In this document: positions 1 through 57,108 of the stretch, piece by piece
Numbering within the stretch: position 1 is the first letter of the stretch
Layout of the letters: each line of letters opens with the position of its first letter
DNA from: Priapulus caudatus
Lineage: Eukaryota; Priapulida; Priapulimorpha; Priapulimorphida; Priapulidae
Reading direction: 5' to 3'
NCBI RefSeq assembly: GCF_000485595.1
Contig: NW_014578084.1
Coordinates: 53,613 to 110,720 of the forward strand
Length of the DNA stretch: 57,108 nt
Made by a program: the position numbers and the translations under genes
Notes under the pieces: model-generated
Seen by the model: the letters and a program-made list of their open reading frames with translations, nothing else
What the model was told of the DNA's origin: nothing
Databases searched by the model: none

Positions 1-74
1 CGCCACATAGCTCTTTCAGTTGTGCAGCTTTTCAACCCCACTTTGCCAGCCCAGTTATACAGAAGGGCAACAGA
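1..74 (-). repeat. DUF4806-like exon repeat, cut by window edge
   Basis: Matches the interior of the dispersed repeat found at 1780-2245, 12030-12510 and 17035-17530. Only the part coding (minus strand) for the segment after the NWAGK motif is inside the window; homology stops abruptly near base 74. Confidence 0.65.
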
Positions 75-1017
75 AGGCATAAATATGCATAAACAGTTTC
101 TGCTTCTGAAACATTATGATAAGTAATATATGAACAATGTATAATCATATATAATGATAATAGCAAATAACTTGCTTCCATTGACTTGTTCAGTACTTAA
201 TTTCTTCAAGCCAAGTTCATTTGTAGCACAGCATTCCATACATTTGTACAACTTCGGTTTTGTGGACATTCTGTAAGCATTACAGAAGGATGTTTCACAA
301 AATGCTCAGCTTTTCATTCTTCACCATGAAATGCTTGAAATTGTTCGTCACCTTCCACTTCATCATTTCCGCTGTGGAAAGTACATTTCAACTGCAACAA
401 TATTTCTCAAGTATTTCTTCATGAAATAGAAAAGATCGTCTACATATCAGCGATATTTCCCATTACAGCTACTATGCTTTATCAATATTAAGTTTTACAT
501 ACTTCTAAAATGTTTGCTAGATTACCTCTGCCATGCGTTTTGGAGGGGACCTTGGCACAACTTGCAGGTGCATGTTACGAATACCTACAGCACAACAGCA
601 AGTGCGCATAATATATTATATATATGAAATCTGGGGTGAAAGAACTTATCAATTCTAAAAAGGATTACACGAGCATAATGCAGTATAATATTAACACATG
701 CACATGTCAACGACTCGTTGTACTCTATTTTTATCAATACAAATATACAATTTACATGAAATACACCACAATACTTTATCCTCCCTATGAATTTTGTGAA
801 TATACAATACATGGTATTCTATATTGGCGATTTCTGGAAATGAAATGAGGAAAGTGTAGCGTCAAGAAACATTTTAAAGGACCGAGTGATCTGGAGGATT
901 AGTTTATTGCTAATTTCTTGGCTTGGCGAGCATTCTTCGTCACTCTCTCCCGTGTTCCTTTTTCCCCTTTTGAGTTACACATGTGTTCGTCAATTGTGGC
1001 TTCGCCACGTTGAATGC
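75..1017. other. No gene recognised; AT-rich spacer
   Basis: AT-rich sequence with many stops in all frames. Overlapping 74-75 codon ORFs on both strands near 585-848 have no recognisable motif and look like chance. Confidence 0.5.
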
Positions 1018-1400
1018 TAATGTCCCAACAGGGATTTCGTTTACACTTTAGGAAGAATAGGACAAATAACGAAATTATTCACCACGTTTAGTAAATTTGG
1101 GGAAAATATTGCCAAGAAATTCGTCAATTCATATTTGCAAATGACACCACTGCATTACTTGATATTGCTGTGGTATACACAATAACTCATGAGTGTATAA
1201 TAATAACGTATTAGCCTATTCACTTTAAAATCCTCATGAAGTATGTATTGTAATCATCATAGAATACCGTTTGTTTTCTGATTCTTTAAAACATTGATTC
1301 ATTAATTGCGTATATTCATATATACTGTATCTATATGTACAAATGTTCTATATTCTATAAATACTTTAAATCGTCCCTAGTACATTATTTTCAAAGTACA
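1018..1400. repeat. Dispersed AT-rich repeat family 1
   Basis: About 380 bp that recurs at 5635-6015, in part at 7345-7475, and in diverged form at 17570-17800. Shared landmarks are a block starting TGTCCCAAC, a TATTCACCACG block and ATAATAACGTATTAGCC. No coding potential seen. Its identity as a transposon is unknown. Confidence 0.75.
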
Positions 1401-1779
1401 TTATATTACCATGGCATTACCCACCTAGCCACAGCATCGTTTCATAGTTTCTCTTCAACTTGCTAAACCTCTCCCTCTCGTAGTCACAGATGCCATGAGG
1501 CTGGTCTGGTTGTCGATACTCATCACTATCAATCTGTTTCGCTCAGTCTGCGTCGGTGTCTCCCAAGAACTTCATGGTGTGTGCGTTCATTGTCGATTAT
1601 GCTTTAAGCGGGAACATAAAGAAATGCCTTCACACTCACAGCTATCTCAACAATCGTCGGTTTTCATATGCCTCTACTAGTAGTACTAGTTCTATACTAT
1701 TACTATTACTAAGTTCAGTTACCTAGTAACGGAAAAGAATGTCATGCACAAATGACACATCCCCTGACACCTCCTGCAC

Positions 1780-2245
1780 TGCCAACATGTCCTGCCAAAG
1801 TCCTTAGAAACTGGTTGCCAAAGAAATCCCGTCTTCCTCTACGAACCATGCATAAGCGACGGCGGCATCGGCTTCCTGAGCAGGGATCGTTCGCTATTTC
1901 CAGGTTGCGGTCCAGCCATCTCAAACTTGCGACTAATACTGGAAGGCGCCATACTCAGGCGGGCCCAGCTCCATGACAGACGGTTGTTCAGCTCACGCCT
2001 CCATTGCGTGCAGCTGCTGCTGCTGCTGCTCATGCCGCGCACGATTCCAATACATCATCGCTGCCTCGGGAGGCATGTAGTTGGCGAAGCTGACATAGCT
2101 GTTTCAGTCGTGCAGGTTTTCCAGCGACTCTTCCCAGCCGAGTTGTACAGAAGGGCCACCTCCTGCGCTAGCACGTGATTCATTCATCCGCGCACCGCGT
2201 CCTTCAGGTCGCTCCCTGCCGTCATTGCGAAGTGGGCGATCTAGC
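1780..2245 (-). repeat. DUF4806-like exon repeat, copy 2
   Basis: On the minus strand this block reads as a degenerate exon: an AVRG-type segment, an LYN.AGK segment and a Gln/Ser-rich (CAG-type) run, with stops and frame slips. The pattern (x-D-x-K-x-A-V-R, then Y-N-W-A-G-K) resembles the C-terminal core of DUF4806 proteins; this is recognition from memory. Copies occur at 1-74, 12030-12510, 17035-17530, 38505-38674 plus 43386-43690, and 45413-45480. It differs in sequence from the intact DUF4806 gene at 50.7-52.0 kb, so it would derive from a paralogue. Confidence 0.6.
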
Positions 2246-8350: not shown

Positions 8351-9495
8351 GAGCCGGGTATACCTCCGTGGTCGCGACGTTTTCAAATGTATAGTTCAAC
8401 GGCGATGTTGCCAGCCGACACTGCACTTCCCACCCCTGTCTACTCCTTGGAGTGTTTTATTAGGCAGTAACCCTGAGAGACGCGCTACCGGGAAGGCGAT
8501 ACTGCTACGTAGCTGAGGTCTGTAGCGGTGCAGGATATCACGAGAGCAGTAAGAGTTGCGCAGGTTATTACGGGTAAACTGTAGCTGACTGTGCAAACGA
8601 GATCTAGTATATACGAATATGTATATTAGAATATACAGCAGGACGCGTTTGCAACGTACGTAGACAAATCGGAATAGCCCCAATTCTGAGATTTCCTATA
8701 GAATAAACTGCTAGCACGACCTCTGTTTCAGTTACACACTCACAACCACAAAAACGAACACAAGGTATCCATGATTATATCTAGCACTCTTATATTATGC
8801 GTACCCTTTACTTAATAACTCGTACTTAATAATAGATCTAACATATAAGAAATACACATAAGACACCTAACCCGGTGTTCAGTAAATACAAAACTAGATT
8901 GATGACTCATACTTTTGCAAATAGCCGACTCGATTGCTGTAAATATTTACGGATATAACAAAAACTATACGAGTATAAATAACTGGGCAAATACAAAACT
9001 GAATGTGCTTAATAGCATGGAGTGTGTAACAAACACGAATTTACACACCAATCATTAAGGTTATTATCAAAGTACACATCCAAACACGCAGTTAAGCACA
9101 TACAGAAGATTATGCAAAATATGATATAATCCAATACTACGAACAGTAAACAAACACGGAACCATTGCCAAGTGATACAGAACGTTGCAGACAATGTATC
9201 ATACAAGGCTGTAGAACAATGAATACACACATGAAACGCTGCAGACATTGATATAACACTAGTTGTCACACAGGCCATACAGTATCTCGACTTCGTCATC
9301 ATCAGAGACATCTAGAGGCGTCTCCAGCACGAGCGGAATTCCATCAAACCGTGGGTCGTTCATGAGAAACTGAAATCCTGCAATTCCTATGTGACCTTTA
9401 CCAATGTTCTCGTGCCGGTGGAGGTGACAGCCCAGGGCACCTGTATTAACAACAATGTCATCAACAAATGGCACGACAGGCAATCAGCGTTACTA
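8351..9495. repeat. Segmental duplication, copy 1 (partner 54599-55738)
   Basis: About 1.14 kb, nearly collinear with 54599-55738, starting at GCCGGGTATACCTCCG and ending just after the last endonuclease IV exon at CGTTACTAAA. In the part I aligned (to about 9060) roughly 18-20 differences are C/G exchanges and only about six are transitions. Beyond the right end copy 1 continues into the intron of the endonuclease gene, whereas copy 2 switches to the tyrosine recombinase gene. Confidence 0.9.
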
Positions 9496-9970
9496 AAGTA
9501 AGCTGATAATATTGACACACTCACATACTACACAATTGGCAAACGTACAAACAAGATTAACCCCAAAAGCACTGAGAGTAAATGTGCCATCACAAATGAC
9601 GCACCAACATTCAACAGTGAAATACAACGGAAATACGCAAATTCACAAGCACCATTATGATTTTGTCATCACGTGACGATGCGGATGCAGTCGTCAAATG
9701 CCTGCGCATTACATTCCGACCAGTGAGGAATGCTAGAGGCACAGAAACCTCTGAGTCGGTGGCGTACGTTCCGGGAGAGAACGTCTGTCTCACCTTTGGA
9801 GTCGTTCAGGTGAACGGCCTTGAGGTAGTTCATCCCGATGACGACCTTGAACTCATTCATCATGGCTTCGTATCCCAGCTTCGTCGCAAGGTCATGACCT
9901 GCGGCGAACGCGTGACACGTGTCCAGGCACACGCCAATCCTAGACTGGTCCTCGACTTTGTTCGGACTTC
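9259..9970 (-). CDS. Endonuclease IV (APN1/Nfo-type AP endonuclease), two 3'-terminal exons
   Basis: Exon 9970-9794 encodes SRIGVCLDTCHAFAAGHDL and ends in VHLNDSKG; exon 9440-9259 encodes GALGCHL, RHENIGKG, a MND.RF.GIPLVLETP motif and the C-terminus LYGLCDN. These are the zinc-ligand motifs of endonuclease IV, which cuts DNA 5' to abasic sites. Splice sites are good: acceptor CAG/GA near 9970, donor G/GTGAGA at 9793, acceptor AATACAG/GT at 9441; the phase-1 join gives HLNDSKGALGCHL. Upstream of 9970 no N-terminal exons were seen; instead repeat family 2 begins. In the family the motif is DRH with Asp and His both binding zinc; here it is HRH (CAC for GAC), while the 55.6-kb copy keeps DRH. 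So this gene is partial and probably inactive unless exons lie elsewhere. Confidence 0.85.
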
Positions 9971-15494: not shown

Positions 15495-15830
15495 CTAATA
15501 AGCATAGAAATGATAAAGATCATCACGGTTATCTATATCATTTTGATATATTCCCTCTGTTGCACACAGAGTCACAACTTTATCAAGTACGAAAAATGGA
15601 GAACATTTGTAATATTGTGGTAAAGTGTTGCAGATATCATCCGTCTTTGGAAAAACAACAAAGATATGTTTCCATAGCAATCTAGAGTGTTCCCATCCAT
15701 AGCACTCACACGATTGTTTGGTCATGTGCACCATGTATTCCATCTTTGCATCTGTCTGGCTTTTCACAATAAAGCTGTCGTCGGTTTCCCTTCGGATAAC
15801 ATGGTGACTAAAAGCAATAATAAATATGTA
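15495..15830 (-). pseudogene. SWIM-type zinc-finger remnant
   Basis: Minus strand reads MVHMTKQSCECYGWE, then LLWKHIFVVF, then TLPQYYKCSPFFVLD. The order C-x-C, W, (C)KH-I-F, then a Leu-Pro..Tyr..Ser-Pro-Phe-Phe tail is typical of SWIM domains in transposase-related animal proteins. The third metal ligand, normally Cys before Lys-His, is Trp (TGG, one C-to-G step from TGC). A second, more broken copy lies at 23883-24020 with the same Trp. Confidence 0.6.
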
Positions 15831-15899
15831 TGCAGGTACAATGTTATCAGTTTCAGTTTTTCTCATAGTGTTCTGCATTACGATTTCACGTAGTTATTG

Positions 15900-16180
15900 A
15901 ACTGCTAGACAAAACTTGACTTGTCATTCTGAATGACATGAATTCAATATCGGTAGGTGCCTTAATCTGTATTGACTGTAAAGTCTCAATGTCAAATGAC
16001 CCATGGTAACATGAATGAGCAATATCATCATCTGGTTATTACACATGTTTTCAGACGTTTACAGGATAATTGCTTTGCCAAATACGTCCAGACAATATTC
16101 ATACATCTGGCCAGTGTAGCTAGTGGAGTCAGGATATTATGTCTATCACAAATTCATACCACGTACGCTAACTGTTCTTC
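15900..16180. other. No gene recognised
   Basis: A 203-codon plus-strand ORF starts here (15972) but runs antisense through the zinc-finger remnant and the coiled-coil exon, so I do not treat it as a gene. Confidence 0.5.
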
Positions 16181-17811: not shown

Positions 17812-18545
17812 AGTTATAGTTACTGCCGCCGTTTAGCCGCGCTTCGTTGCATTTCTTGACTTTCACATTCACAGCACTGCGCAGAAATAACATTGCCTCA
17901 ACACCGACCAACGGCCATGCCGCACGAGACGGTTGCACAGCTCAGGCAATCCACGAGATGCGTTCCGTCGATCGGAGCACGACGTTGCGGTGTTGTCCAG
18001 TGCCCGTGCCAGTCCACGCGCGGTTCCTACCACAGCCCGACCGGCCCAGCCCTTACAGCGAGTCGTTTTGCCCAACTTACGCATTTGACTTGCCGACTTG
18101 CCTTACCTACATTCTTCTATCCACTAGAGGCTCTTGACCTTGGACACCTGCTGCGGATATCGCTACGATCCTCAACCAAAAGCACACTGTGTCCCTCGCA
18201 TTTTGAACGGTCGACGGCAGTGCACCAGACAGCGCAACAGCGGCGGTGCTTTACGCAAAGAACATGCCTATCTCCGGCCAAACGCATTCCACGGAGTGAG
18301 CCCGTTACAAAGAAAACACAACTCTTCACGGCACTACTGCCGACGTCTCCGAGTTCCTTTGCCTTGCCGCACTCGACCCCGAAGGGCCAATCTCCGTGGC
18401 CGGTTTCGAGAATATTAACCCCATTGCGTTTCCATCGACGGCGGGAAAAACACATTGCCGTCGCTTCCGAATGCCCTTCGCCTATCTCTTACGATTCACT
18501 CACCCACGTCGAAGTGCTTTTTACATGCAAACCTTCTCGACTTCC
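17812..18545 (-). pseudogene. 28S rRNA pseudogene fragment
   Basis: Antisense 28S from GTTATAGTTACTGCCGCC through GACTTTCACATTC, CATTGCCTCAACACC, CTTACCTACATTCTTC, ACACCTGCTGCGGATAT and GGCCAATCTCCGT to the CATGCAAACCTTCTC segment. Expansion-segment sequence is shortened. It is the second most complete central-domain block. On the rRNA strand it ends at AACTC, within a few bases of the R2 site. The 234-codon plus-strand ORF across it is an antisense artefact. Confidence 0.9.
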
Positions 18546-22327: not shown

Positions 22328-22366
<39 letters not shown>

Positions 22367-22962: not shown

Positions 22963-23029
22963 AATTCGACGCTGCCTGTGTGTAAGCTGGTCGTCCGCTC
23001 CCTGACGGGTATCGAGGCGAACGTGTGTG

Positions 23030-35090: not shown

Positions 35091-35800
35091 CGCACTCCAC
35101 GCAACGCTTCGTTAATTCTGCTTCAGAATAATAGGAAGAGCCGACATCGAAGCATCAAAAACCAAGGTCGCTATGAACCCGTGGCTGGCACAAGCCAGTT
35201 ATCCCTGTCGTAGGTTTTGTCACACCTCTTCGTTAAAACTCGTCAAATGAAAACGATGGATAGGCCACGCTTTGACGGTGTGTATTCGTAGTGAAAATGA
35301 AAATCTACCGACCTTTTCCCCTTTTGCTGTACGCGACGTTTCTGTCGTGGCTGAGCTCGCCTTACCAAACGTGCGTTACCCTTTCACAGCTGTACCGCCC
35401 AACTGAAACTCCGTGTGTGACAGTGACACTGTCTTCGAGGCGCATTGCCGTCGGCACTACACCGACGGTTTCATTCCATAACAAACAGCCGTCACGCTCG
35501 CTTTCCGCTTCATGCACTAAGTCAACACACGATGAAAGTAGTGGTATTTGACAGGCGTCCGAAGCGTCGCACCTATTCTACACCTGTCATGTCTCTTAAG
35601 ACAGTCCCACTACAGTGCAGCTGAACAGGGTGTTCTTTCCAACCTCATTTGGCCAAGCCCGTTCCCTTGGCTGTGGTTGCGCTAGATAGTACATATGCAC
35701 AGTGCGAATCTCGTTGATGCATTCATGCGCGTCACTAATTCCATGACCAGCGATTCGGCTATTTTGTGTGGTCATTCCCGGTTTGTACGTGTGGAGGGAC
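35091..35800 (-). pseudogene. 28S rRNA 3'-domain pseudogene, copy B
   Basis: Collinear with copy A (21776-22475) and copy C (44850-45412). Contains TGTCGGCTCTTCCTATTATT, AACTGGCTTGTGCCAGCC and the CCAAGGGAACGGGCTTGG core on the minus strand. Over the full 1.19-kb unit, 27 of 39 differences from copy A are C/G exchanges. Confidence 0.92.
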
Positions 35801-36287
35801 GCGGCATCGACGAATCCGTTTTGCGATCTTGCAAACACTTTCGGCAGCATGCACGAATCGGATCGTCTGGAATTGCCGTTTCCACATTTCTTTACTTTCA
35901 AAATCCCGAGCGTCGGGTTGTGTACTGGGCCAGTACTGGGCCAGTAGAGGGTGAGAAGCGGCCGAGTATTGTGCCAGCAGTGGCCCAGTGCTCTATTCAA
36001 TATTATATTGAGCACCACTATCATTATAATAATGAGCAGTCGTATAATTATAATCACGAACAAGCACATATCAGTCATCAATAATCACTTTTCTACACAA
36101 TTAGTGATTACACCGATTTCTAGGTATTTTATAAACCAATGTATAAATTGCTGTATCGACTAATGCGAAGAATATCATTAAATATGACGTGTACACATAT
36201 ATATATGCTTTATACAAAACAACATCGTCATCTCAACACAAAACAATTGCACGGAATGCGCCCCTTATAAAGAAAACACACATATTG
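35801..36287. repeat. Remainder of the duplicated 1.19-kb unit, copy B
   Basis: Collinear with 22476-22962, including the TACTGGGCCAG direct repeat and the decayed 28S scrap at 36207-36287. Confidence 0.88.
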
Positions 36288-36389
36288 AATTCTGTAACAA
36301 GCTCAACAGCTGTACATTCAGCTTACAGACAGGCAGCAGCAGGATACACATTGATTATAATGTCGATGTGCCAGTCGATGTGCACACAT

Positions 36390-37310
36390 ATTATTGGATA
36401 ATTGCTTTCCGTGGTTATGTCGTTAGGTGATTCGTGAGTCGTTCCTCTTGGTGTTTCGTTTCGTGTTGCTATTTCGTTCTCACTATTTCGTGTTTACACG
36501 TCCAATGTGCGAAAAACTTCCAATATCATGTCGAAGCGGTCATACGTTCGTTGAAGTTGTTGTTGCTGTTGTAACCTAGCTGTTTCTTTCTTGCGCTGTG
36601 CCTGAATCTGTACATGTCAGGATAGCTTATAGCTTCGTCTCGTATTTCCTACATCGCCACAAAAACATGACGACATAGCAAATGTCGTGTTAACAATTTC
36701 TACTTGTAATATATCAATGGAACAGTTACAAATTTCAATATAAACATTAGGTCCCTACAGTATAATATAGGGAACATGGAACAACATAGAACAATAAATG
36801 AAATAGAATATCATTATTGACTGTCATGCGTGAAAGTCACACAATAAATGCCTGCGACTAAAAACACAAATTACACAACTGTACTATTACAGTTACGCAC
36901 AACTTTTAAATATGTAACTGCCATATGCACGAGAACATGAAATGCACACAGGGTGACAAAAATGATCCATTCACCACGAAGGAACACACACATTTTACAC
37001 CCCACTAAATGAACCTCAAGATATAGTCAACGGATCGTAAGCTCGTCGTGCGCTCCGTCACGGGTATCGAGGCGAACGTGTGTCGGTGGGCAACGTGCCG
37101 ACTATCACTGAGCACTGATGCAATGGCTTCACACAACACATCACGAACACAACGTTTTGCAACGGAGGCAATACACGAGAACACGCACGTCGCTGTCACA
37201 TGACCAAAGAAACATGTGGCATCGGCGGGTTTGTGACAAAACCATCCTTTTCCATTCGCCGACTTCTATATGGTTATGTATTTGTGGCTATATATTACAA
37301 GGTTGACGTA
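36390..37310. repeat. Dispersed repeat family 5, long copy
   Basis: 36430-37310 is collinear with 45837-46700 over about 870 bp. I counted about 34 C/G exchanges, seven transitions, two A/T and about eight other transversions between them. No coding motif. Confidence 0.88.
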
Positions 37311-37694
37311 AACCGAATTCATGAAGATGCTCATGCTCAGCTCGTCCCATAACATGGTTGGTACAGTCCTTGAAAAGTCCGTACATTTCGGGCCAGCCCG
37401 TCAAAACTAGTTACATTTACTAAATGTCGAGTTTCTGCTTGAAAACTGCTGGAATTTCATGGAAATGTCCTTGAATTTGATAGAAATGTGCTTCAATTTC
37501 TATAAAGAATCATTGCCATCTCATGAATAATGTGTAAAGGTCAATACAAATTGCGTGGAATGACCTCAACACCCTATACATACGATAGACAGTTCAATGC
37601 TCATAACAAATTACAGTAAGTCACTCAAATGAGTGAGTACATAAAGGTATGTTGCAGAAGTCACAGTGTGTACAAGGGTTCATTCATCTCATCC
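37311..37694. other. No gene; partly similar to 11280-11380
   Basis: 37322-37420 shares GAAGATGCTCATGCTCAGCT and flanking sequence with 11285-11375; followed by short degenerate tandem units around TGGAAATGTCCTTGAAT. Confidence 0.5.
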
Positions 37695-38504: not shown

Positions 38505-38674
38505 TAACATGTCCTTGCAACGTCCTTCAAAACTCCTTCCAAAACACACTCCGTCTTCTTCTACGAACCATGCATAAGCGACGGCCGCATCGGCTTCCTT
38601 AGCAGGGATCCTTCGCTATTTTCACGTTGCGGTCCAGCCATGTCAAACTTGGGACTAATACTGGAAGCCTCCAT
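38505..38674 (-). repeat. DUF4806-like repeat, left half, split by Gypsy insertion
   Basis: Matches 1785-1955 (CGAACCATGCATAAGCGACG, GCGGTCCAGCCAT, GACTAATACTGGAAG). The right half resumes at 43386. The last five bases TCCAT (38670-38674) are repeated after the 3' LTR. Confidence 0.85.
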
Positions 38675-38792
38675 TGTGGCGATATGTACAGTATTGATAT
38701 ACGAGCGCCACCTATGGACGAGTATTGTACGAAACTATAATAAATCAGTTGTTGTTACACGCCCGCCATCTTTGGTTGTTCTCCACGTTATA
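38675..38792 (+). repeat. Gypsy 5' LTR, 118 bp
   Basis: Identical to 43268-43385. Unusually short for an LTR. Contains GCGCCACCTATGG and an AATAAA-like ATAATAAATC. Confidence 0.95.
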
Positions 38793-38816
38793 TGGTGTCA
38801 GAAATTGTGTTTCACA

Positions 38817-39660
38817 ATGAATGCCGGACCGTTTAGACGCCCTAAGGAATTGAAACTCACAGGAAATGTGAGTGAGAACTGGAAAAAGTTCAAACAGGAA
38901 TATGAAATTTTCCTGTCGGCGTGTGGTATCGATGATGCAAACGACCAACGAAAGGTCAGTGTATTGCTCAATGTGATCGGACCAGACGGACTTGAGCTGT
39001 AATAATACTTTCACTCGTGGAGAATGAGGGGATGAATCTGAAACAGAAAGACAGTGTGTGATAAGTTCGAAACGCATTGCAACCCAAAAGAAAAACGAAA
39101 CGTACGAAAGGCATTTGTTCAAGTGTCCGCGTACAGAATGATGGCGAATCAGTGATCAGTTTGTCATCTGATTTACCGTAGACTTGCCAAATCATGCGGA
39201 TTCGATGCTTTGCGCAGCAATCCCTCATTAGAGATCAGATCGTGTCAGGTGTGCGCGACTTTCACATCATAAGAACGGCTACTTCGAGAACCTGAGTTAT
39301 CGCTGGCTAGAGCGGTGCAGATTTGCCGAGCTGCTGAAGTAAGCAAAATGCATGTGCAAAGATTTGAAACTTGCGACACCACATTCCGCAGTAACTCTAA
39401 TGTCGTTCATGCTATTGGCCGTGCCGGTGCACGTGCGTTCATGGCGAGAGGGACAACGTCGGGGACACAAAGGGGGAGGGGCGAGGTCTAGGCCTGAAAT
39501 GATGGAGAAGAAAAGCCCAGCCAGGACCCCCATGTTCAAAAATGTGGATATACATACCACAAGTCAGGACAGTGTCCAGCGTTGGATAGAAATTGTAGTA
39601 AGTGTAAGAGACGGGGACACTTTGCAAAGTGTTGTAGATCGGCTGTTTCAAAAGCATGTC
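38817..39660 (+). pseudogene. gag: Gypsy gag with CCHC knuckle, frame-broken
   Basis: ATG at 38817 opens MNAGPFRRPKELKLTGNVSE and continues as a capsid-like helical region to a stop at 39000. The stop results from an extra A in the run at 38999-39004; past it the other frame continues. Near 39588-39650 the sequence encodes C-S-K-C-K-R-R-G-H-F-A-K-C-C, the nucleocapsid zinc knuckle, in a further frame. Gag would form the particle and bind the RNA. Confidence 0.8.
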
Positions 39661-39855
39661 ACTTGGTTGAAGATCGCGACCAGTAATGATGAACAAGACG
39701 ACTATGGGTTGTTCATTGACATGATACACACTGATTCGGTGACAGCAACTCAGAGAAACCAGTGGCAAGTTAATGTGGAATGGAAACAGCAACCAGTTTC
39801 ATTCAAGTTAGATACAGGGGCAGAGATTAAACTGTATCCCGAGAACATTGTGTGA
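39661..39855 (+). pseudogene. pol: Gypsy protease region
   Basis: Encodes WKQQPVSFKLDTGAEI with the catalytic aspartate triad D-T-G at 39811-39819, then a stop at 39853. Downstream, 39900-40235 continues in a new frame with the linker VLGLPTCLHMKLI and YTDVFDI. A normal pepsin-like monomer is about 100 residues; here it is split. Confidence 0.75.
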
Positions 39856-40189
39856 CCAATTGAACATTGCACACTCCATCAAGCCATCCAGTGTGAAGCT
39901 TGTTGGCTACTTTGGACAAAAGCGGAAGCCGTGGAAAGGTGACACTCAACGTCAAATATAAAGATGGTATATTCCCGACGGAATTCCATGTAATTGACGG
40001 AATGGTGGCGGTGAGACCTGTTCTTGGACTCCCCACATGTTTGCACATGAAGCTCATTGAGAGAGTGTATGCAGTCAGAGAATACATGGAACCAGAGAAC
40101 AGGCCAGAGGAAATTCTGGACAAATACACAGACGTGTTTGATATCTGGGCTGTCTGCCGACTACTTATGACATTAAAATTGATGAGACG

Positions 40190-40830
40190 GTATCACCAGT
40201 TGTACATCCGCCCAGGCGAGTGCCCTATGCCTTGAGAGACAAAGTGAAGGCACAGTTGAAGAAAATGACACAAGAAGGAAGTATATAGAACCTGTTGAAG
40301 AAACCTAGTGAATGGGTCAATTCCATGGTGGTGATTGAGAAAACGAATGGGAGTTTGCGCATTTGCATCGACCCGAAGGACTTGAACCGAGCTATTAAAC
40401 GGGAGCATCACCCTATGAAAGCACTGGATGAAGTCGCCGTCCGAAATTTTGTCTGGAGCACAGTACTTCAGTGTTTTGGATGCTGGACAAGCATACTACC
40501 AAGTGCCTGTTACCCAGCGGAGTGCCAAGCTGTTGACGTTCAATACGCCGTTCGGACGACATCGGTTTAAACGCATGGCATTCGGTATAAATCAGCCTCC
40601 GGAAGTGGTGGCAGAGAATTGCGTCAGCAGATGTTTGACGACATGGATGGAGTCGAGGTGATTATGAGACGATATCTTGATATGGGAAAAACCATCCAGG
40701 AACACAATGCGAGAACTTCATACAGTGTTTGCGCCGTGTCCGTGAGTATAACCTCACACTGATCGTGCGAAATGCAAAGTTGGACTGACATCAGTCGCAT
40801 ACATGGGCAACGTGCTGACACGAGAATGGA
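40190..40830 (+). pseudogene. pol: Gypsy reverse transcriptase, frame-broken
   Basis: Successive frames give EWVNSMVVIEKTNGSLRICI with DPKDLNRAIKREHHP, then AQYFSVLDAGQAYYQVPV and TFNTPFGRHRFKRMAFGI. The catalytic Y/V-x-D-D box is interrupted at about 40660-40675 by a one-base insertion (ATTATGAGACGATATC). Earlier frame change lies near 40430-40450. Converts the RNA to cDNA in intact relatives. Confidence 0.85.
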
Positions 40831-41034
40831 CTACAATGTCGAAAGAGCGCATAACAGCAATCACGCGCAGATGAAATCGCCAAAGGACAAAACTGGTTTG
40901 GCAGAGATTTCTAGGAATGGTGAATTTTGTTGGAAAATTCCTTCCTAACCTCTCCAAGCGGCAGTGAGCCAATTGCGTGAGTTGCTACGGAAAGATGTAG
41001 CATGGCCACTGGGATGAGCATCACCAGGCGAGTA

Positions 41035-41470
41035 TGGATGACCTCAAATCAGCCCTGACATGAGAAGACACCAGTTCTTGCTTACTACAACCCAGAGGAA
41101 GCCGTCACACTCTCGGTTGATGCTTCTCAAGAAGGTTTAGGTGCATGTCTAATTCAGGGAGGAAGGCCAGTAGCATATGCTTCACGCTCGCTGAGTAGTG
41201 CTGAAAGAAATTATGCCAACATTGAACGTGAGATGCTAGCCATTGTATGGGGCTGTACAAAGTTCCATGACTACATTTATGGGAGATCGGGCGTGGTTGT
41301 GGAAACCGACCATAAGCCATTAGAAGCCCTGACCGAAAGCTGTTGACATCAGCACCTCCAAGAATACAGAGGTGGCTCATCAGATTGCAGAAATATGATC
41401 TGCAGGTCCAGTATAAACCTGGAAAGGAGATGTTTATTGCTGATGCACTAAGTCGAGCTCCAGTGGGCTT
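41035..41470 (+). pseudogene. pol: Gypsy RNase H and connection region
   Basis: From 41080 the frame reads PVLAYYNPEEAVTLSVDASQ, GLGACLIQGGRPVAYASRSL, NIEREMLAIVWGCTKFHDYI and TDHKPLEAL: RNase H with its Asp, Glu and Asp residues. After a slip at 41340 it continues RIQRWLIRLQKYDLQVQYKP and ADALSR, the conserved end of the domain. Confidence 0.88.
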
Positions 41471-41742
41471 GCCCGAGCAAGAAGGTGAAGAGGATGGACA
41501 TGTTCACACAGTGGAAAACATGCCAATCACCGAGGAAAGGTTGAAAGAGTTTCAGCTGGCAACACAACGAGACAGTACTTTACACAGTCTGAAAGAGTAC
41601 ATTGTCATGGGTTGGCCGGAGGAACGGTCAAAAGTATCTGTAACGTGAGACAGTATTGGTCATATCGTGAGGAACTGAGCTGTAGTAATGGGTTTACTAC
41701 TGAGTCAGAGAGAATTATTGTGCCAGAGGTCTTCGTGCGGAC

Positions 41743-42426
41743 ATGTTGGATCGTATCCACAGTAGTCATCTAGGTGTTGAGAAGTGCCAGCGGAGAGCGA
41801 GAGATATCCTGTTTTGGCCAAGTATGAATGACCAGATAAAGGAGCTAGTGAGTCGATGTGACATTTGTCTGTCATTTCGAAACAAACAGCAGAAGGAACC
41901 ACTGAAGTCTCATGCGATTCCTCAGAGGCCATGGCAAAAAGTCGCAACAGACTTGTTTGAAATCGACGGAGTTATGTACATTTGCTTGGTAGACTACTAC
42001 TCGAAGTTTGTCGAGTTTACCAAAGTATCTGACACTAAGAGTGCAACTGTGATTGAGTGGCTAAAAGAACAGTTTGCACGTTATGGCCTCCCAGAAGAAG
42101 TCATTTCCGATAATGGTCCCCAATACTCCAGTGATGTGTTCGCAGAGTTTGCACGCAAATACGAGTTTCAGCATCATACCTCCTCCCCGGAGTACCCGCA
42201 AAGCAACGGTATGGCTGAACGGGCTGTGCAGACCTTGAAACGGTTGTTGAAGAAAGTAGGCCGAGCTGGACGTGATCCCTACTTGGCAATATTGGAGTGG
42301 AGAAACACCCCTCTCCAAGGAATGGGCTCACCCAGTCAGATGTTGATGGGTCGAAGAACAAGGTCCCGTCTGCCTGCAACTGGAAAGTTGTTGAAATCAC
42401 CTAACTTCAACGATAACAGTAACTGA
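41743..42426 (+). pseudogene. pol: Gypsy integrase, intact HHCC and DDE core
   Basis: A single 227-codon frame holds the zinc-binding HHCC segment (HSSHLGVEKC..DICLSF) and the catalytic core: ATDLFEI (Asp), VISDNGPQYSS (Asp) and NGMAERAVQTLKR (Glu). Linkers and the downstream helix (EWRNTPLQGMGSPSQMLMGR) are as in the family. The C-terminal tail is broken by stops after 42426. This is the best-kept domain of the element. Confidence 0.92.
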
Positions 42427-43267
42427 GCAGCTTGGGAAAAATCACGTCGAAACAACAGCATTATTATGATCATGGTGCCAGAGCACTTCCTCCAATTGCT
42501 GTTGGAGAGACAGTGAGAATGCACGTATGAGGAAACTCTGAAGACCCAGCTGTTGTGAGGGAGAAGTCAGCAGAGCCGAGATCATTCATAGTCGAGCGAA
42601 ATGTCGGCAATACAGGAGAAACCGGAAGCATCTGTTGAAAACAGGTGAATCAGCGGTGGTCGTGCCGGAGGTTCTGGATGTTCCAGTTGGTCGAGAGACA
42701 GATGAAGGTAGAGACCGTGCTATAGTATGTGATCCGATGGAGAGTCGCCAACCTACATGTGCTGGTCCAGTAAGCAGTGCCGTGACTCATAGATCGGAAG
42801 CAGCGCCAGTTTGTGTCTACTCGTTCTGGGAGAGTAATCAACCACACGAGTAGATTTAAGGACTTTGTGTAGCATGGGCAATATGCCTAAGTCGATCAGT
42901 ATGTGACAGCTATCAGGAAGGATGCTAGTTGGAAATTAGAGTAGAATAGGATTTGGATTACTTGTTTAAACTGTGAATGTTGAACTGAACCTAGTCATAT
43001 ACAGATTGTATATGTGATTGTAGTATGATTTATTTCAGAAAGTGTAAAGCATACACCGATGTAGTTCTTTATATATTTGATCAGTTTAGTTCAAACATAG
43101 AAATGAAAACATACATTACATTGATGGAACGGATTTGAACATAGAGACATATCGTTAGTACAGTAAAACATATTCTTTCATTTTTATTAGTTGAAGAATC
43201 TCCTGTAGGAATTAGCACAGAGAGAGTTGGAATTGAGTTAAAGTATAGTTCATACTTGGAAGGGAGA

Positions 43268-44849: not shown

Positions 44850-44875
44850 TCAACAATGCAACGCTTCGTGAATTC

Positions 44876-44909
<34 letters not shown>

Positions 44910-45412
44910 CATCAAAAAGCAAGGTCGCTATGAACGCGTGGTTGCCACAAGCCAGTTATCCCTGTCGTAGGTTTTGTCACACTTCTTCGTTAAAACTCCT
45001 AAAGTGAAAACGATGGATAGGCGACGCTTTCACGGTGTGTATTCGTAGTCAAAATGAACATCAAGCGACCTTTTCCCGTTTTGCTGTACGTGACGTTTCT
45101 GTCGTGGCTGAGCTCGCCTTACCAAACGTGCGTTACCCTTTGACAGCTGTACCGCCTTAGTGAAACTCCCTGTCTGACAGTGACACTGTGTTCGAGGCGC
45201 ATTGCCGTCGGCACTACACCGACGGTTTCATTCCATAACAAACAGCCGTCACGCTCGCTTTCCGCTTCATGCACTAAGTGAACACACGATGAAAGTAGTG
45301 GTATTTGACAGGCGTCCGAAGCGTCGCACCTATTCTACACCTGTCATGTCTCTTAACACAGTCCCACTACAGTGCAGCTGAAGAGGGTGTTCTTTCCAAC
45401 CTCATTTGGCGA
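44850..45412 (-). pseudogene. 28S rRNA 3'-domain pseudogene, copy C
   Basis: Collinear with copies A and B but stops inside CTCATTTGGCGAAGCTCC, where it switches to the DUF4806-like repeat at a short microhomology (AAGC/CTCC). At one site this copy keeps the canonical base (CTTTGACAG) where A and B read CTTTCACAG, showing the exchange occurred in the A/B lineage. Confidence 0.9.
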
Positions 45413-45480
45413 AGCTCCATGACAGACGGTTACTCAGCTCACGCCTCCATTGCGTGCAGCTGCTGCTGCTGCTGCTCATT
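45413..45480 (-). repeat. DUF4806-like repeat, short piece fused to 28S
   Basis: CCATGACAGACGGTTACTCA to the CTG run, as in 1972-2030. Confidence 0.75.
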
Positions 45481-45616: not shown

Positions 45617-45836
45617 TTACAATGTCAATATGCGCGTTGGCCAACTGCACAGGCTGGTATATTACGTTGAAGCGCGGCCGGCGCGCAGTGAATGAGCACT
45701 CAGTCGTGCCGCCACTGTGCAGGGAGCCAGCGAGGTAGCAGTGAGTCGTGGCGATGCACTTGTCGTAGAAAGGCGCCGACTATCACTCCGCACTGATGGA
45801 ATGGCTTCAGAGAACAAAGGACGCACACGACTGGTT

Positions 45837-46700
45837 CGTTTGGTGTTGCTATTTCGTTGTCATTATTTCGTGTTTACACGTGGAATGTGCGAAAAACTTC
45901 GAATATCATGTCGAAGCGGTCATACGTTCGTTGGACTTGTTGTTGCTCTTGTAACCTAGCTGTTTCTTTCTTGCGCTGTGCCTGAATCTCTACATGTCAG
46001 GATAGCTTATAGCTTCGTCTCGTATTTCCTACATCGCCACAAAAACATCACGACATAGCAAATGTCGTGTTTACAATTTCTACTTGTAATATATAAATCG
46101 AAGAGTTACAAATTACAATATCAACATTAGGGGCCTACAGTATAATATAGGCAACATCGAACAACATAGAACAATAAATCAAATAGAATATCATTATTCA
46201 CTGTCATGCGTGAAAGTCACACAATAAATGCGTGCGACTAAAAACACAAATTACACAACTGTACTATTACAGTTACGCAGAACTTTTAAATATGTAACTG
46301 CCATATGCACGAGAACATGAAATGCAGACAGGGTGAGAAAAATGATCGATTCACCACAAAGGAACACAGACATTTTACACCCCACTAAATGAACGTCAAG
46401 ATATAGTCAACGGATCGTAAGCTCGTCGTGCGCTCCGTGACGGGTATGGAGCCGAACGTGTGTCAGTGGGCAACGTGGCGACTATCACTGAGCACTGATG
46501 CAATGGCTTGACACAACACATGACGGACACAACGTTTTGCAACGGAGGCAATACACGACAACACGCACGTCGCTGTCACATCACCAAAGGAACATGTGGC
46601 ATCGGCGGGTTTGTGACAAAACCATCCTTTTCCATTCGCCCACTTCTATATGGTTCTTTATTTTGCGCTATATATTGCAAGGTGCACGTAAACCGAATTC
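45837..46700. repeat. Dispersed repeat family 5, long copy 2
   Basis: Collinear with 36430-37310. Non-coding. Followed by a short CTA/ACT microsatellite at 46720-46768. Confidence 0.88.
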
Positions 46701-46767
46701 ATCAACACGAATCACAAAACACTAACTACTACTAACTACTACTACTACTATTAGTACTAATTAGTAC

Positions 46768-52006: not shown

Positions 52007-54598
52007 CTGTTGCAAACGCAATGTACGCTGTAAATGTAATGTCTTCTGTACGCTTTGAAAAGATTTTTCTAAGAATTGACATGTTTTCGTTCAAGATATA
52101 CGCACTACAGCAATATCACTGCAATTTTTTTATAGGTCTTAACTTGCAGTTATAAACAATAATTTCAAGTTACTTAAGGTTCTAGGAAATGAAGCTAGAT
52201 TCCAAGCTGTAACTGGATTGACAAGATAATTGGAATGTGAAGCGAACACCATAATCTTAATTTCCTAATTTTTATAAGAAAGGCAAACTGTAAGTAGCAT
52301 CAGTATATTGCTCTTCATTTTATATTCCAGCAACGTAGTCACTTTTACATTAGGTTAGGGTCTCCGAAGTACATCCTGTGTATAAAAACAGAAATGAAGC
52401 AATTTTGTTGTGAGCCACGATTTCTTAGTTAATAAGAAATGAAATTAAAAACAACGCAAATGCAGATTCTGTGTTTTAATGAATTGCAAAATGTACTTTA
52501 CTGCTAGATACCTGATCTTCAGTAACTGCTACGAGCCACAGATACAGTTTTACTAGGCAGAATGGTATTCCCAGCTCTACAGCCACAGGCACTTCAAGCG
52601 TTTCAATAAAATGTAATGGTAACTAAATACAAAATCTATTTAGTACCAAATTACTAGAAGCAGTACCATGTTGTTCACAAGTTCTTGTGCAACTTGTCGG
52701 TTTAAAACTTTGGAAACAAAGTAGCATATGATATGTAGCCAAACAATTCCAAGATATAAATACACAAAGAATGTGGGTTTTCATGCTCGACTTTATATAC
52801 ACTCACACGAGGGAGTACCGGAGTGTTTGAAATGTATAAATGACAGTTGAGTTTGAATGTTCAGTAGTTATATATGTAGTATTGTACAATTAGTAAACTG
52901 TCATTTGCACGAAAATGCACATTGTTAATATTACTTCCTGCTACAAATAACATGAACAAACAACAAATTCTTCAACTCCACTGTTATCCTACAGCTATTC
53001 TGCTATGCAATCGAGTGTGCATTCGTAAAGATATATAGATAAATAGACAGCACTTCTACCACATACATGGAAAAACGTCCTCCACTATCATACCATATAA
53101 AACTTTACTCAACTTATAAACAAATTAGCTGTTAAATGCATTCTACTATCGTCATATGTTGGTTCGCATTTTATACTCATATCGCCGTTACTCGAATTGT
53201 TTCACTACCACATCAATACAATCTGGAGATTCCATCTCCAAGTCATTAGGCGTTTCACATCCAAACATTTCTTCACCGTGAAATTCAAATCTCATCCACT
53301 TCAACGTCATACCTCGCATAGTCCAACATTAGTTTACAGATTGGCTCCCACTGCAAAAAACTAAAACAATAATGAAAACATTGATGTCCTTGACAACACA
53401 CACAATACATATCAGAAATACTGCTATACACATCACAACGCTGACGACTCTGTATGTGCATTGAACCTTACCCGTATACGAAGGTTACCGCAGCTAGATC
53501 GACTTCAATCGGTCATGCTTCTTGGTGCAATTTAAAATTGGAGAATGTACTATTTCACGAGAAATACTGCATCATGTGTCCTACACCTATTTGTAAACTT
53601 AAGATTAGTTTGAGCATGTGAGGTTCAGGAGGATTAGTTGCTGAGATAGGTGTGAAGTTAGTCACCTAAAGACTACTACAGTCTAGGAATGTCCCAAATG
53701 AACCCAGTTAGGTTTGTGCATATCACTATATAAACACATTATGTAAGCTTTACCAAGCTACGTAATGCAAAAGCATCAAGATGATAAATTGTAGCTCACA
53801 TGACCAATGACAGGTAATTCTCAGGAACATGACAAATCAAAACCACATAGCATGCAAATTTGAAATTTGAAATTTGAACGTTAGCTGCAATTACACACCC
53901 ACATCCCCGCACCCACCCGCTCGCGCAATACTCAGTTCCGAGATTGATATCATATAAGATGGACGATATATTATATTGGAGGACAAAACGATTTGCACGG
54001 GCAGCGGACGGCACGAGAGGAGGAGCGGCGAGGCGGAGAGGGAAGGGAGAGGAAGGAATGGCCAGCTGGGAATTAGAGAAATATATTACGATCATTACCG
54101 GCATCGTAACAATGCCGGTGCCAATTAACGCGCTCATGCATTACGCAGAGTAATGAAGCTGAGACAGCAGCAGTAAGTAACTAACGTCGGCCTTATGCAG
54201 ACATCGGAGGGGCTGCCTCGCAGCACGACCTCCCTCCATCCACATCAGTGACCGTTATGAGCGACAGCTGTCGGAGCTATATGACAGGTAATGTCATAAG
54301 CGAGGCGTCCACTTATCGCTGATAATCGCGAAGAGGAACGCATAAATTATGCAACGCGACGAGCGAGAGAGCAGCCCGGTGTTTTTTGATGTAATGCATT
54401 CGTTCAGCGAATGCCGACATTCCATTTGGTTATAATAAAGTAGACATTTAGAACTGCGCGAAGACATTTCTGCGCACTGCACACATCTTTGCAGGGCGCT
54501 CTGTGTGCACAGCAGCTGTTAAAATCCCAGCGCCATGTCCAGCTGAAACTAACTCACTTACTTACTGACGCACTTACAACGATTACGTGTAAAGCAGC
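52007..54598. other. No gene recognised; GC-rich CpG block at 53,880-54,150
   Basis: 52.0-53.85 kb is AT-rich without motifs. 53,860-53,880 has three tandem ATTTGAA units. 53,880-54,270 is clearly richer in CpG and purine-rich (GAGAGGAGGAGCGGCGAGGC) and could be a promoter region for the minus-strand DUF4806 gene, which is inference. A small hairpin CCGGCAT..ATGCCGG lies at 54,097-54,117. Confidence 0.4.
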
Positions 54599-55738
54599 GC
54601 CGGGTATACCTCCGTGGTCGCGACGTTTTCAAATGTATAGTTCAACGGCGATGTTGGCAGCCGACACTGCACTTCCCACCCCTGTCTACTCCTTGGAGTC
54701 TTTTATTAGGCAGTAACCCTGAGAGACGCGCTACCGGGAAGGCGATACTGCTACGTAGCTGAGGTGTGTAGTAGAGCATATCACGAGAGCAGTAAGAGTT
54801 GCGCAGGTTATTACGGGTAAACTGTAGCTGACTGTGCAAACGAGATGTAGTATATACGAATATGTATATTACAATATACAGCAGGACGCGTTTGCAACGT
54901 ACCCACAGAAATCGGAATGGCCCCAATTCTGAGATTTTCTATACAATAAACTGCTAGCACGACCTCTGTTTCACTTACACACTCACAACCACAAAAACGA
55001 ACACAAGGTATCCATGATTATATCTACCACTCTTATATTATGCGTACCCTTTACTTAATAACTCGTACTTAATAATATATCTAACATATAAGAAATACAC
55101 ATAACACACGTAACCCGGTGTTCAATAAATACAAAACTACATTCATGACTCATACTTTTGCAAATAGCCCACTCGATTGCTGTAAACATTTACGATTATA
55201 TAACAAACTATACGAGTATAAATAACTGGGGAAATACAAAACTAAATCTGCTTAATAGCATGGAATGTGTAACAAACAGGAATTTACACAGAAATCATGA
55301 ACGTTATTATCAAAGTACACATCCAAACACGCAGTTAAGCACATACACAAGATTATGCCAAATATGATATAATCCAATACTAGGAACAGTAAACAAACAC
55401 GGAACCATTGCGAAGTGATACAGAACGTTGCAGACAATGTATCATACAAGGCTGTAGAACAATGAATACACACATGAAACGCTGCAGACATTGATATAAC
55501 ACTAGTTGTCACACAGGCCATAGAGTATCTCGACTTCGTGATCATCACAGACATCTAGAGGCGTCTCCAGCACTAGCGGAATTCCATCAAACCGTCGGTC
55601 GTTCATGACAAACTGAAATCCTGCAATTCCTATGTCACCTTTACCAATGTTCTCGTGCCGGTCGAGGTGACAGCCCAGGGCACCTGTATTAACAACAATG
55701 TTATCAACAAATGGCACGACAGGCAATGATCGTTACTA
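54599..55738. repeat. Segmental duplication, copy 2 (partner 8351-9495)
   Basis: Collinear with copy 1 from GCCGGGTATACCTCCG to CGTTACTAAA. Its right edge coincides with the start of the tyrosine recombinase open frame. Confidence 0.9.
55502..55683 (-). pseudogene. Endonuclease IV last exon, duplicated orphan copy
   Basis: Encodes GALGCHLDRHENIGKGDIG, MNDRRFDGIPLVLETP and LYGLCDN, with the acceptor CAG/GT kept. Unlike the 9.3-kb copy it keeps the zinc-binding Asp of the DRH motif. Its partner exon is missing: 55 bp upstream on this strand the sequence becomes the tyrosine recombinase gene in the opposite direction. So it is an isolated exon. Of eight amino-acid differences from the other copy, seven are C/G changes. 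Confidence 0.85.
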
Positions 55739-55740
55739 AA

Positions 55741-57010
55741 CGCTGGAGGAGCAAAGTCCGAAAAAAGTACCCAGCAGCATTTTCCCCAGGCTTCGCACAT
55801 CATACAATTAATGGGCCTCACCACCATCAAGGACCTCGAGGTAGAAGGCCCAGACTTGATTGAGTCTGCGATACGTCTACTAAAGGGACAAAAGATAGTA
55901 GCAGGCTCAATCAGGTCATACCTAACAAGCCTGAACATTTTTGTAAAGATGGTGCTGCTGAATGTGCAGATGGGGCGACTCGGCGGAGACGTGGAGAGGC
56001 TGAGGGCCGTTATAACAACAATCTCCAACCATGACAGGCCTCTACTAAGAATGAATGAAGAAATGCAAGTGGAGCTTTGTGTGTCGGAGCTGCGCAATGT
56101 GATCACACCTGAGAACATCAGGACATTTGACAGCTCCGACAGGTGCCAACTAGCAAGGGACCTGTTGCAGGAGGCAGCAACCAACCTGCCGGTGGCAGAT
56201 TGCACCTTCGTAAGGGACTACCTGCTATCCAACATGTTCCTGAGCAGTGGAGGAGAGGGTTAGGGAGACCCTAACCCTAACCCACCGCCATCGGACCCCT
56301 GACGGTGGGGTCCGTCAATTCTGCTCAGGAGCAGGGAGGATTTCACGTGCTAATCCAAGAAAAACATAAGACCGACGGTCTTCCGGGGCGGCAAGGTTCG
56401 CCGTGACCAAGGATGTCTACCGCATGCTCAACAGCTATGTTGAGCACATCCTGCCATGCCTGGTCGGAAAGGTGAGGGAGTCATCGCCCCTATTTCCTTC
56501 AGCTGGAGGACTCCTATTTGCTAACCCCGACAACATCAGCCGGCTCTTCACCGCTTTCTGGAGCTCTGCGATGCCCTCAGGAGCTAATCAAATTTCGTTG
56601 ACCACCTGGAGGAAGTCAATGGCCACAATGATGTTAAACCAGAGGCCGGACTTTAAATCCATGAGCCACCGTGAGACGACGCAGGCTAAGTACTATGACT
56701 TAGCTCAGTCAGTCGCGTCATACACGGTACGGTGGTGGCCGCCGCCTACCAGGAGGTCTTTGGGGAGCCATCGACCTCGTCAAGACGTGAGTCAATTGCA
56801 ATTGTATGAAATTGTACAAATACACAGTTGTAAGACAAAATTAAGCAAGTAACAAACTATAGACAAATGTTTTGAAAATATCCTTTCTTTTGACATATTT
56901 AGGATCCCCCACCGCACTGGAGGAGCTGTACGAGGGAGACGAGGAGGAGGAAGACTCGCCCTGCCGACAGGGAGAGTCCCTGTCAACTCGCTCATCGTCG
57001 CCTGAGCAAC
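55741..57010 (+). pseudogene. Crypton-like tyrosine recombinase, frame-broken, with spliced acidic tail
   Basis: Open from about 55741 (ATG at 55811) to a stop at 56261: IKDLEVEGPDLIESAIRLLK and a long helical N-terminal core-binding domain ending DYLLSNMFLSS. After a telomere-like insertion the frame resumes LTVGSVNSAQEQGGFHVLIQ with the HKT motif near 56370, slips, and continues VTKDVYRMLNSYVEHI, LFAN, LTTWRKSMATMML (catalytic Arg), MSHRETTQAKYYDL (catalytic His, Arg and Tyr). A 5-bp tandem duplication ACGGT (56724-56733) shifts frame; beyond it VVAAAYQEVFGEPSTSS reaches donor GAC/GTGAGT (56786). Exon 56903-57010, after CATATTTAG, adds an acidic Ser-rich tail (ALEELYEGDEEEEDSP). Cryptons are DNA transposons using such recombinases; a domesticated gene is an alternative. 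Confidence 0.75.
56257..56283. repeat. Telomere-like inverted motif
   Basis: GGGTTAGGG, then AGA, then CCCTAACCC and TAACCC: an inverted pair of TTAGGG-type units inside the recombinase reading frame, at the point where the frame is lost. A second small inverted repeat, GGACCCC..GGGGTCC, follows at about 56293-56313. Confidence 0.85.
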
Positions 57011-57079
57011 GCGAGTCAATTGCAATCGTATGAAATTGTACAAATACACAGTTGTAAGACAAAATTAAGCGAGTAACAA
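56787..57079 (+). repeat. Tandem duplication of an intron start around the acidic exon
   Basis: 56787-56855 and 57011-57079 are near-identical 69-bp blocks, each starting at a splice-donor position (GTGAGTCAATTGCAA and GCGAGTCAATTGCAA). The second donor is of the GC type. The unit (about 224 bp) includes the acidic exon and may continue past the window edge. Confidence 0.85.
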
Positions 57080-57108
57080 CTTAGCTTATAAGTGTATTGA
57101 AAGTTTCA

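What the first reader, a model, noticed from the sequence alone, without database searches (positions are those of the whole stretch)
1..57108. Repeat copies differ mainly by C<->G exchange
Counted by eye: the 1.19-kb unit at 21776-22962 versus 35100-36287 has 39 substitutions, of which 27 are C/G, three are transitions and none are A/T. The 870-bp pair 36430-37310 versus 45837-46700 has about 34 C/G of about 51, with seven transitions. The first 700 bp of 8351-9495 versus 54599-55738 shows roughly 18-20 C/G against about six transitions. In ordinary animal DNA, transitions dominate and C/G is among the rarer classes. The pattern occurs in unrelated non-coding, rRNA-derived and exon-derived blocks. 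No flanking-base preference was obvious: TpC context fits about 12 of 19 sites in one pair, near chance. Known routes to C>G include REV1 inserting C opposite abasic sites and the C>G clusters linked to double-strand-break repair in human germlines. A base-calling or polishing fault is the main rival explanation.
Basis: partly seen in the sequence, partly recalled or inferred. Interest (0 to 1): 0.9.

Follow-up and report, generated by a model that had tools for sequence, protein, structure and literature searches.

The report
Local C-to-G mutation zones in Priapulus
In a marine worm's genome, certain patchwork stretches have kept swapping C for G at particular neighbouring bases, while comparison repeats elsewhere in the same genome mutate normally, which points to an undescribed locally acting source of inherited mutations.

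Summary
Over window repeats it is 1140 of 2161 substitutions (53%), against 269 of 2584 (10%) among control repeats of the same genome. COX1 places the genome in Priapulus caudatus. The bias is not genome-wide: besides the window it appears among pieces of nine other contigs sharing its mosaic blocks. Polarised against outside copies, C:G>G:C makes 205 of 397 changes, versus 16 of 202 on control branches. A LINE inserted in the window shows the bias on its window branch only, 19 of 41 versus 2 of 37, so location rather than local duplication matters. A young gypsy-type insert does not show it (0 of 5). Events are unclustered and grow with age. Base-calling error is very unlikely. Best reading: chronic abasic-site formation at YpC cytosines, bypassed by dCMP insertion (REV1-like). 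No AID/APOBEC gene was found; the initiating enzyme is unknown.

The parts
21776..22967 (+). 1.19-kb mosaic unit, copy 1 (includes LSU rRNA fragment on - strand)
   Evidence: 27 of 39 differences to copy 2 are C/G
35101..36292 (+). 1.19-kb mosaic unit, copy 2
44858..45415 (+). third copy of the rRNA-derived half of that unit
   Evidence: 16 of 27 and 19 of 30 differences are C/G; derived C/G changes shared with copies 1 and 2
8353..9961 (+). block with a 95% parent at C530:209748-211349
54352..55740 (+). second window copy of the C530 block; 32 of 54 differences to the first are C/G
36452..37325 (+). 874-bp unit, copy 1
45832..46705 (+). 874-bp unit, copy 2; 35 of 53 differences C/G
17920..18543 (+). 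LSU-rRNA-derived block repeated at 34342-34965; 52 of 87 differences C/G; relatives at C1368, C979, C37
7639..8326 (+). 688-bp block cut from a repeat with normal-spectrum copies at C767, C1409, C884; the window branch carries the C/G changes
15551..16166 (+). block shared with C39 and C2517, also C/G biased between those two contigs (55 of 91)
24500..28500 (-). LINE-type retrotransposon (reverse transcriptase and endonuclease domains; approximate ends) inserted in the mosaic; window branch 19 of 41 changes C<->G, sister copies 2 of 10 and 0 of 27
38600..43200 (+). gypsy-type element (integrase domain; ends approximate, LTRs not checked), young insert; 881 aligned columns: 5 window-branch changes, none C/G

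Best explanation
A locus-restricted, long-running germline mutation process in Priapulus turns C:G into G:C at YpC cytosines (TC > CC) on both strands. SHOWN (by sequence comparison): locality relative to the controls examined, direction, context, lack of C>T and C>A preference at TC, lack of clustering, growth with age, and an effect on a LINE inserted there. INFERRED: cytosines in these mosaic loci are converted to abasic sites, most simply by a TC-preferring cytosine deaminase followed by uracil excision, while the DNA is single-stranded (transcription, break repair or replication of these rearrangement-prone arrays). Translesion synthesis then inserts dC opposite the abasic site (REV1-like), giving C>G almost exclusively. 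The mosaic structure would come from repeated same-orientation duplication and deletion of the same arrays, plausibly through the same fragile, recombining state.
For: Window-window 1140 of 2161 C/G vs control 269 of 2584; pieces of nine other mosaic contigs among themselves 417 of 856. Polarised 205 of 397 vs 16 of 202. Context TC 90/706, CC 39/513, AC 41/817, GC 23/673; CCC 1/105; GCG 1/139. C>G at TC 98/827 vs 97/2159 elsewhere (p 7e-12), but C>T 14/827 vs 33/2159 and C>A 10/827 vs 22/2159, so the extra product is C>G. LINE: 19 of 41 vs 2 of 37 on sister branches, p 3e-5, similar gradient TC 14/152, CC 6/121, AC 3/109, GC 3/92 (TC vs rest p 0.018). No clustering: 38 neighbour pairs within 10 bp, 44.8 +/- 5.0 expected, 168 events in 8 pairs. 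C/G divergence rises 2.7, 5.5, 7.4, 8.2, 9.7% over bins in which other divergence rises from 1.6% to 11.6% (44 pairs). Hot trinucleotides are depleted against their C>G products in most long-resident mosaic DNA of the window (index 1.6-2.1 by segment) but not in the LINE (0.84), the gypsy-type insert (1.12) or the random control C10 (0.88) (exceptions in the full report). T>G share is also raised, 62 of 136 vs 36 of 123 (p 0.007), as expected if dC is inserted opposite other template bases. Uracil excision plus dC insertion by Rev1 gives C>G in yeast and in antibody somatic hypermutation (PMC6765108, PMC4889928; passages read).
Against: No AID/APOBEC-like gene was found: PF18778 none at E <= 1; PF08210 one 18.3-bit partial match below cut-off, probably chance. 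UDG and SNAD4 searches did not complete; REV1 was not searched. Known APOBEC mutagenesis also leaves C>T at TC, which is absent here. Gypsy-type insert 0 of 5 (chance ~0.05 at the LINE's rate). No strand-coordinated runs (z -0.28). Nothing shows these loci are single-stranded or transcribed. Control and mosaic labels were partly given after seeing spectra. A linear fit of C/G on other divergence has a positive intercept (0.028), which saturation explains but a burst at duplication could add to.
Confidence: 0.5

Rival explanations
1. Break-repair or meiosis-linked C>G mutagenesis, as at human germline C>G hotspots and X-linked meiotic breaks: the arrays are break-prone and error-prone repair leaves C>G, without a dedicated deaminase.
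For: [quoted passage not shown] The loci are heavily rearranged: 224 direct vs 5 inverted self-HSP rows (each pair listed both ways), sharp junctions.
Against: The human autosomal C>G mutations described there are clustered; here there is no clustering and no strand runs. Whether the human process has a TC context was not established here.
Confidence: 0.25
2. A targeted genome-defence or diversification system: an unidentified cytosine-attacking enzyme (deaminase, or a glycosylase removing cytosine directly) is directed to these loci, an animal counterpart of fungal RIP with a C>G product.
For: Bias in mosaic pieces on ten contigs with normal controls elsewhere, action on an inserted LINE, C>G product without TC-linked C>T. 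In nine of nine tested blocks minus-strand cytosines are hit slightly more than expected (143 C>G of 309, 178.9 expected, z -4.2; -2.9 without C1716, C179 and C12), as a directional targeting process might give.
Against: No enzyme found. The strand bias could partly come from changes on parent branches. Control repeats elsewhere are untouched, so repetition alone is not the trigger.
Confidence: 0.15
3. Base-calling, polishing or assembly fault.
For: Only one assembly is available here; raw reads could not be seen.
Against: Control repeats in the same assembly have 10% C/G. The changes have a trinucleotide context that recurs in the LINE. In the rRNA-derived block 12 C>G and 9 G>C changes are shared by three copies about 10-23 kb apart, as inheritance predicts.
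Confidence: 0.03
4. 5-methyl- or 5-hydroxymethylcytosine instability, or guanine oxidation.
For: A paper links hydroxymethylated cytosines to C>G rates (PMC4161303, title and abstract start in the search listing only).
Against: CpG cytosines are hit less than others, 18/555 vs 175/2154. GGG, a preferred site of guanine oxidation (recalled), is nearly immune: CCC 1/105.
Confidence: 0.04

Closest known systems
APOBEC/UNG/REV1 mutagenesis (COSMIC SBS13; name and profile recalled)
   Same: C>G on either strand, strongest at TC; abasic-site bypass gives C>G
   Different: Inherited and confined to certain loci here; CC also hit; no TC-linked C>T; no clusters; no deaminase found
Human germline C>G hotspots and X meiotic-break C>G signature (PMC6731651, passages)
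   Same: Regional, heritable C>G excess
   Different: The human autosomal events are clustered; here C>G is about half of all substitutions and unclustered
Break-induced replication with APOBEC3A in yeast (PMC6765108, passages)
   Same: Rearrangement-prone DNA, C>G through Rev1
   Different: C>T and C>G about equal there, in clusters; here C>G only and dispersed
Fungal repeat-induced point mutation (PMC7296669, abstract start in listing)
   Same: Heritable, directed at certain DNA
   Different: RIP targets repeats with C>T; here C>G, and control repeats elsewhere are spared
Antibody somatic hypermutation (PMC4889928, passages)
   Same: C>G from abasic sites at a defined locus
   Different: Somatic, AID-driven with several mutation classes; here germline and C>G-dominated

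Membership tests
APOBEC/UNG/REV1 (SBS13-like) mutagenesis | C>G concentrated at TC | tested here: met
   TC 98/827 vs 97/2159 elsewhere (this set includes the LINE); LINE alone TC 14/152 vs 12/322; without the LINE TC 90/706 vs 103/2003
APOBEC/UNG/REV1 (SBS13-like) mutagenesis | accompanying C>T at TC | tested here: not met
   C>T at TC 14/827 vs 33/2159
APOBEC/UNG/REV1 (SBS13-like) mutagenesis | AID/APOBEC-family deaminase in the genome | tested here: inconclusive
   PF18778 none; PF08210 one 18.3-bit sub-threshold match; split exons could be missed; SNAD4 search unanswered; other clades not searched
APOBEC/UNG/REV1 (SBS13-like) mutagenesis | clustered, strand-coordinated mutations (kataegis form) | tested here: not met
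Human-type germline C>G hotspots | regional C>G excess in the germline | tested here: met
Human-type germline C>G hotspots | clustered de novo mutations, link to parental age and breaks | tested here: inconclusive
   no clustering in 168 events, but these are long-fixed differences; age and breaks not testable
Repeat-induced point mutation | C>T changes in repeated DNA | tested here: not met
   C>G instead, and control repeats are normal
5mC/5hmC-driven mutation | CpG preference | tested here: not met
   CpG 18/555 vs 175/2154

The most novel reading that the evidence does not exclude
An animal germline DNA-editing system that repeatedly attacks cytosines at chosen, mosaic, directionally organised loci and converts them to guanine: an animal analogue of RIP with a transversion product, using a deaminase or a direct cytosine glycosylase not yet described.
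Probability: 0.2. Interest if true: 0.95.

Novelty: new variant of a known kind. Interest (0 to 1): 0.82.

Why it matters
Germline mutation spectra usually differ between regions by small amounts (general knowledge). Here about half of all substitutions in certain loci are one normally rare class, with a sharp context and little by-product, in an ecdysozoan. It offers a natural system to study heritable abasic-site/REV1 mutagenesis, what marks a locus for it, and whether animals edit their own germline DNA at chosen places.

Tried and rejected
Genome-wide bias: rejected by control repeats. Base-calling fault: see rivals. One burst at each duplication: C/G divergence keeps rising with other divergence and flattens (a linear fit has a positive intercept of 0.028, so an added burst is not fully excluded). 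5mC/5hmC and guanine oxidation: context is against both. Splicing or retrocopying as origin of the blocks: junctions of ten block-parent pairs show no consistent splice signals (by eye; one parent flank was not held). Telomeric location: one exact two-unit TTAGGG match in the window, at 56269-56280. tRNA genes: none found. AID/APOBEC gene: NAD1 none; APOBEC_N gave a 31-residue open stretch with an SPCxxC motif at C46. As a 30-residue peptide it matches six AID/APOBEC Pfam families at E 6e-4 to 0.12 and, in the PDB, six APOBEC3G sequences at E 0.39 to 0.78 and nothing else. But it was picked as the best of a whole genome (E 0.4), is bounded by stops, and starts inside a likely splice donor (GTAAAC) that ends a coding-looking stretch of another frame (by eye), so I count it as probable chance. 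Early remark that C1024:1-53612 lacks such repeats: void, that stretch reads N. Literature: searches listed (6 to 15 papers each) no paper I recognised as describing this in Priapulus; they cover open-licence PMC papers only.
Full report
What was checked. The window is the last 57,108 bases of contig C1024 in a 385-Mb, 2952-contig genome. Its contig C2952 (14,919 bp) encodes a COX1 whose best match is Priapulus caudatus, 96% with a translation that leaves ATA as Ile; the matching NCBI protein also sits on a 14,919-bp contig. So this is a priapulid worm, very probably P. caudatus. The stretch of C1024 before the window reads N, so the edges of the region are unknown.

The observation. All identity bands show the excess: 152 of 247 substitutions at 93% identity or more, 204 of 335 at 88-93%, 521 of 988 at 80-88%, 313 of 677 below. 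Control repeats of the same genome do not. With one rule for all (HSPs of at least 80 bp, E <= 1e-8) control-control pairs give 269 C/G of 2584 with 1140 transitions. Window-window pairs give 1140 C/G of 2161 with 480 transitions. Caveats: HSPs overlap. Only C10 (L036) was a randomly taken control that could be read (by itself 29 of 199); C1 and C5 were taken too but read N. The other controls are places that matched the window, and control or mosaic labels were partly given after looking at spectra.

Where it occurs. The window is a patchwork. Of 229 self-HSP rows (each pair listed both ways) 224 are direct and 5 inverted. A 20-kb query finds pieces of it on many contigs (39 of 719 candidates scored). 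Pieces of nine contigs (C1368, C39, C2517, C2401, C2059, C1092, C352, C979, C1057) share blocks. Pairs among these pieces give 417 C/G of 856, and pairs with the window 1423 of 2691; in a given pair it is not always known which side changed. Other copies of the same blocks are normal or nearly so towards one another. C767/C1409/C884 give 10 of 76, 6 of 62 and 9 of 78. The rDNA-like copies at C37, C202 and C1344 give 8 of 33, 7 of 32 and 8 of 37, somewhat above the control mean. Against: two C979 copies at 98.6% show 1 of 12, two C39 copies 2 of 6 and C1092-C352 5 of 14; these are few changes.

Direction and context. With outside copies as ancestors, unique changes on window branches are G>C 113, C>G 92, all other ten classes together 192 (397 in all). 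Control branches have 16 of 202, one of them (C37 vs C202) not truly polarised. Two of the eight window blocks (C1716, C179) use a single parent of unproven normality. Rates per ancestral cytosine: TCT 0.188, CCT 0.135, TCC 0.131, TCA 0.124, down to CCC 0.010 and GCG 0.007. In a set that drops C1716 and C179 and adds the LINE (one outgroup) and C12 (normality also unproven), C>G is 98/827 at TC and 97/2159 elsewhere, whereas C>T is 14/827 vs 33/2159 and C>A 10/827 vs 22/2159. So the TC-linked extra mutations are C>G only. T>G is modestly raised too, 62 of 136 A:T changes vs 36 of 123.

Position, not local duplication. A LINE at about 24.5-28.5 kb has many copies elsewhere (62 matches, the window included, from 40 scored of 271 candidates). 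I fetched pieces of two. The three-way comparison puts 19 C<->G among 41 changes on the window branch, 2 among 10 and 0 among 27 on the other two (p 3e-5), with a similar TC > CC > AC/GC order (which also uses columns with one outgroup). A gypsy-type element at about 38.6-43.2 kb is younger: 5 window-branch changes in 881 columns, none C/G; its two other copies have 1 of 8 and 6 of 24. That is compatible with recent insertion but counts weakly against (probability 0.046 at the LINE's rate).

Time course. C/G divergence climbs with other divergence and then flattens (2.7, 5.5, 7.4, 8.2, 9.7%; 44 pairs), as a continuing process with hot sites that saturate would give. Much of the long-resident mosaic DNA is depleted in the hot trinucleotides relative to their C>G products (index 1.80 at 1-24 kb, 1.59 at 28.5-32.5 kb, 2.05 at 32.5-38.5 kb, 2.14 at 43.6-50.6 kb, 1.61 at 50.6-54.3 kb); the LINE (0.84), the gypsy-type element (1.12), the last 1.3 kb (0.80) and random C10 (0.88) are not. 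But several ordinary loci reach 1.4-1.6, the C767/C1409/C884 pieces 2.0, and some mosaic pieces are low (C1057 1.10, one C1368 piece 1.39), so the index alone is not diagnostic.

Arrangement of events. C/G events are not clumped (8 pairs, 168 events) and show no runs by strand. There is a mild excess of G>C on the + strand in all nine tested blocks (143 C>G of 309 against 178.9 expected, z -4.2; -2.9 without C1716, C179 and C12). Changes on the parent branches would pull in the same direction where the plus strand is C-rich, so I treat it as suggestive.

Mechanism. Pure C>G at TC/CC with little at CpG or GGG points to abasic sites at cytosines, bypassed by dC insertion. The papers whose passages I read describe this for Rev1 after APOBEC3A and uracil excision in yeast, where C>T and C>G are about equal (PMC6765108), and for somatic hypermutation and TpC>G in tumours (PMC4889928). 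AID/APOBEC-like proteins are described in sea urchin (PMC5956068, passages). In this genome NAD1 gave nothing and APOBEC_N one weak, probably chance, match. UDG and SNAD4 searches did not complete. The initiating enzyme and the reason for locality are therefore open. Break-linked C>G of the kind reported for the human germline (PMC6731651, passages) is the main rival; the lack of clustering speaks against it.

Verdict. Closest in chemistry to SBS13 (recalled), in being regional and inherited to human C>G hotspots, but not a member of the first by the tests made here, and not shown to be one of the second.

Noticed in passing
window 1-57108: Self-repeats are almost all in direct orientation (224 of 229 HSP rows), and most other mosaic contigs largely keep one orientation towards the window (C1092 is mixed; a few C1368 and C352 pieces are reversed).
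   Followed up: partly
window 14208-45392 (- strand): Six LSU rRNA fragments, all on the minus strand, from three separate parts of the rRNA and not in collinear order.
   Followed up: partly
window 55811-56852: Two open frames of 150 and 149 aa with no Pfam match; the stretch lacks the C>G steady-state signature (index 0.80), so it may be a recent insert.
   Followed up: no
window 56269-56280 (- strand): One exact TTAGGGTTAGGG (0.04 matches expected with up to one mismatch).
   Followed up: no
L058 (C1568:73993-77988): A 96% copy of about 4 kb of the mitochondrial genome with an ordinary, transition-rich difference spectrum (C/G 1 of 27): nuclear copy or second mitochondrial assembly.
   Followed up: partly
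L061 (C46:46380-46680): 31-residue open stretch with SPCVTC resembling the zinc motif of AID/APOBEC enzymes; probably chance.
   Followed up: partly
window polarised blocks: T>G (A>C) changes take a larger share of A:T changes than on control branches (62 of 136 vs 36 of 123).
   Followed up: partly
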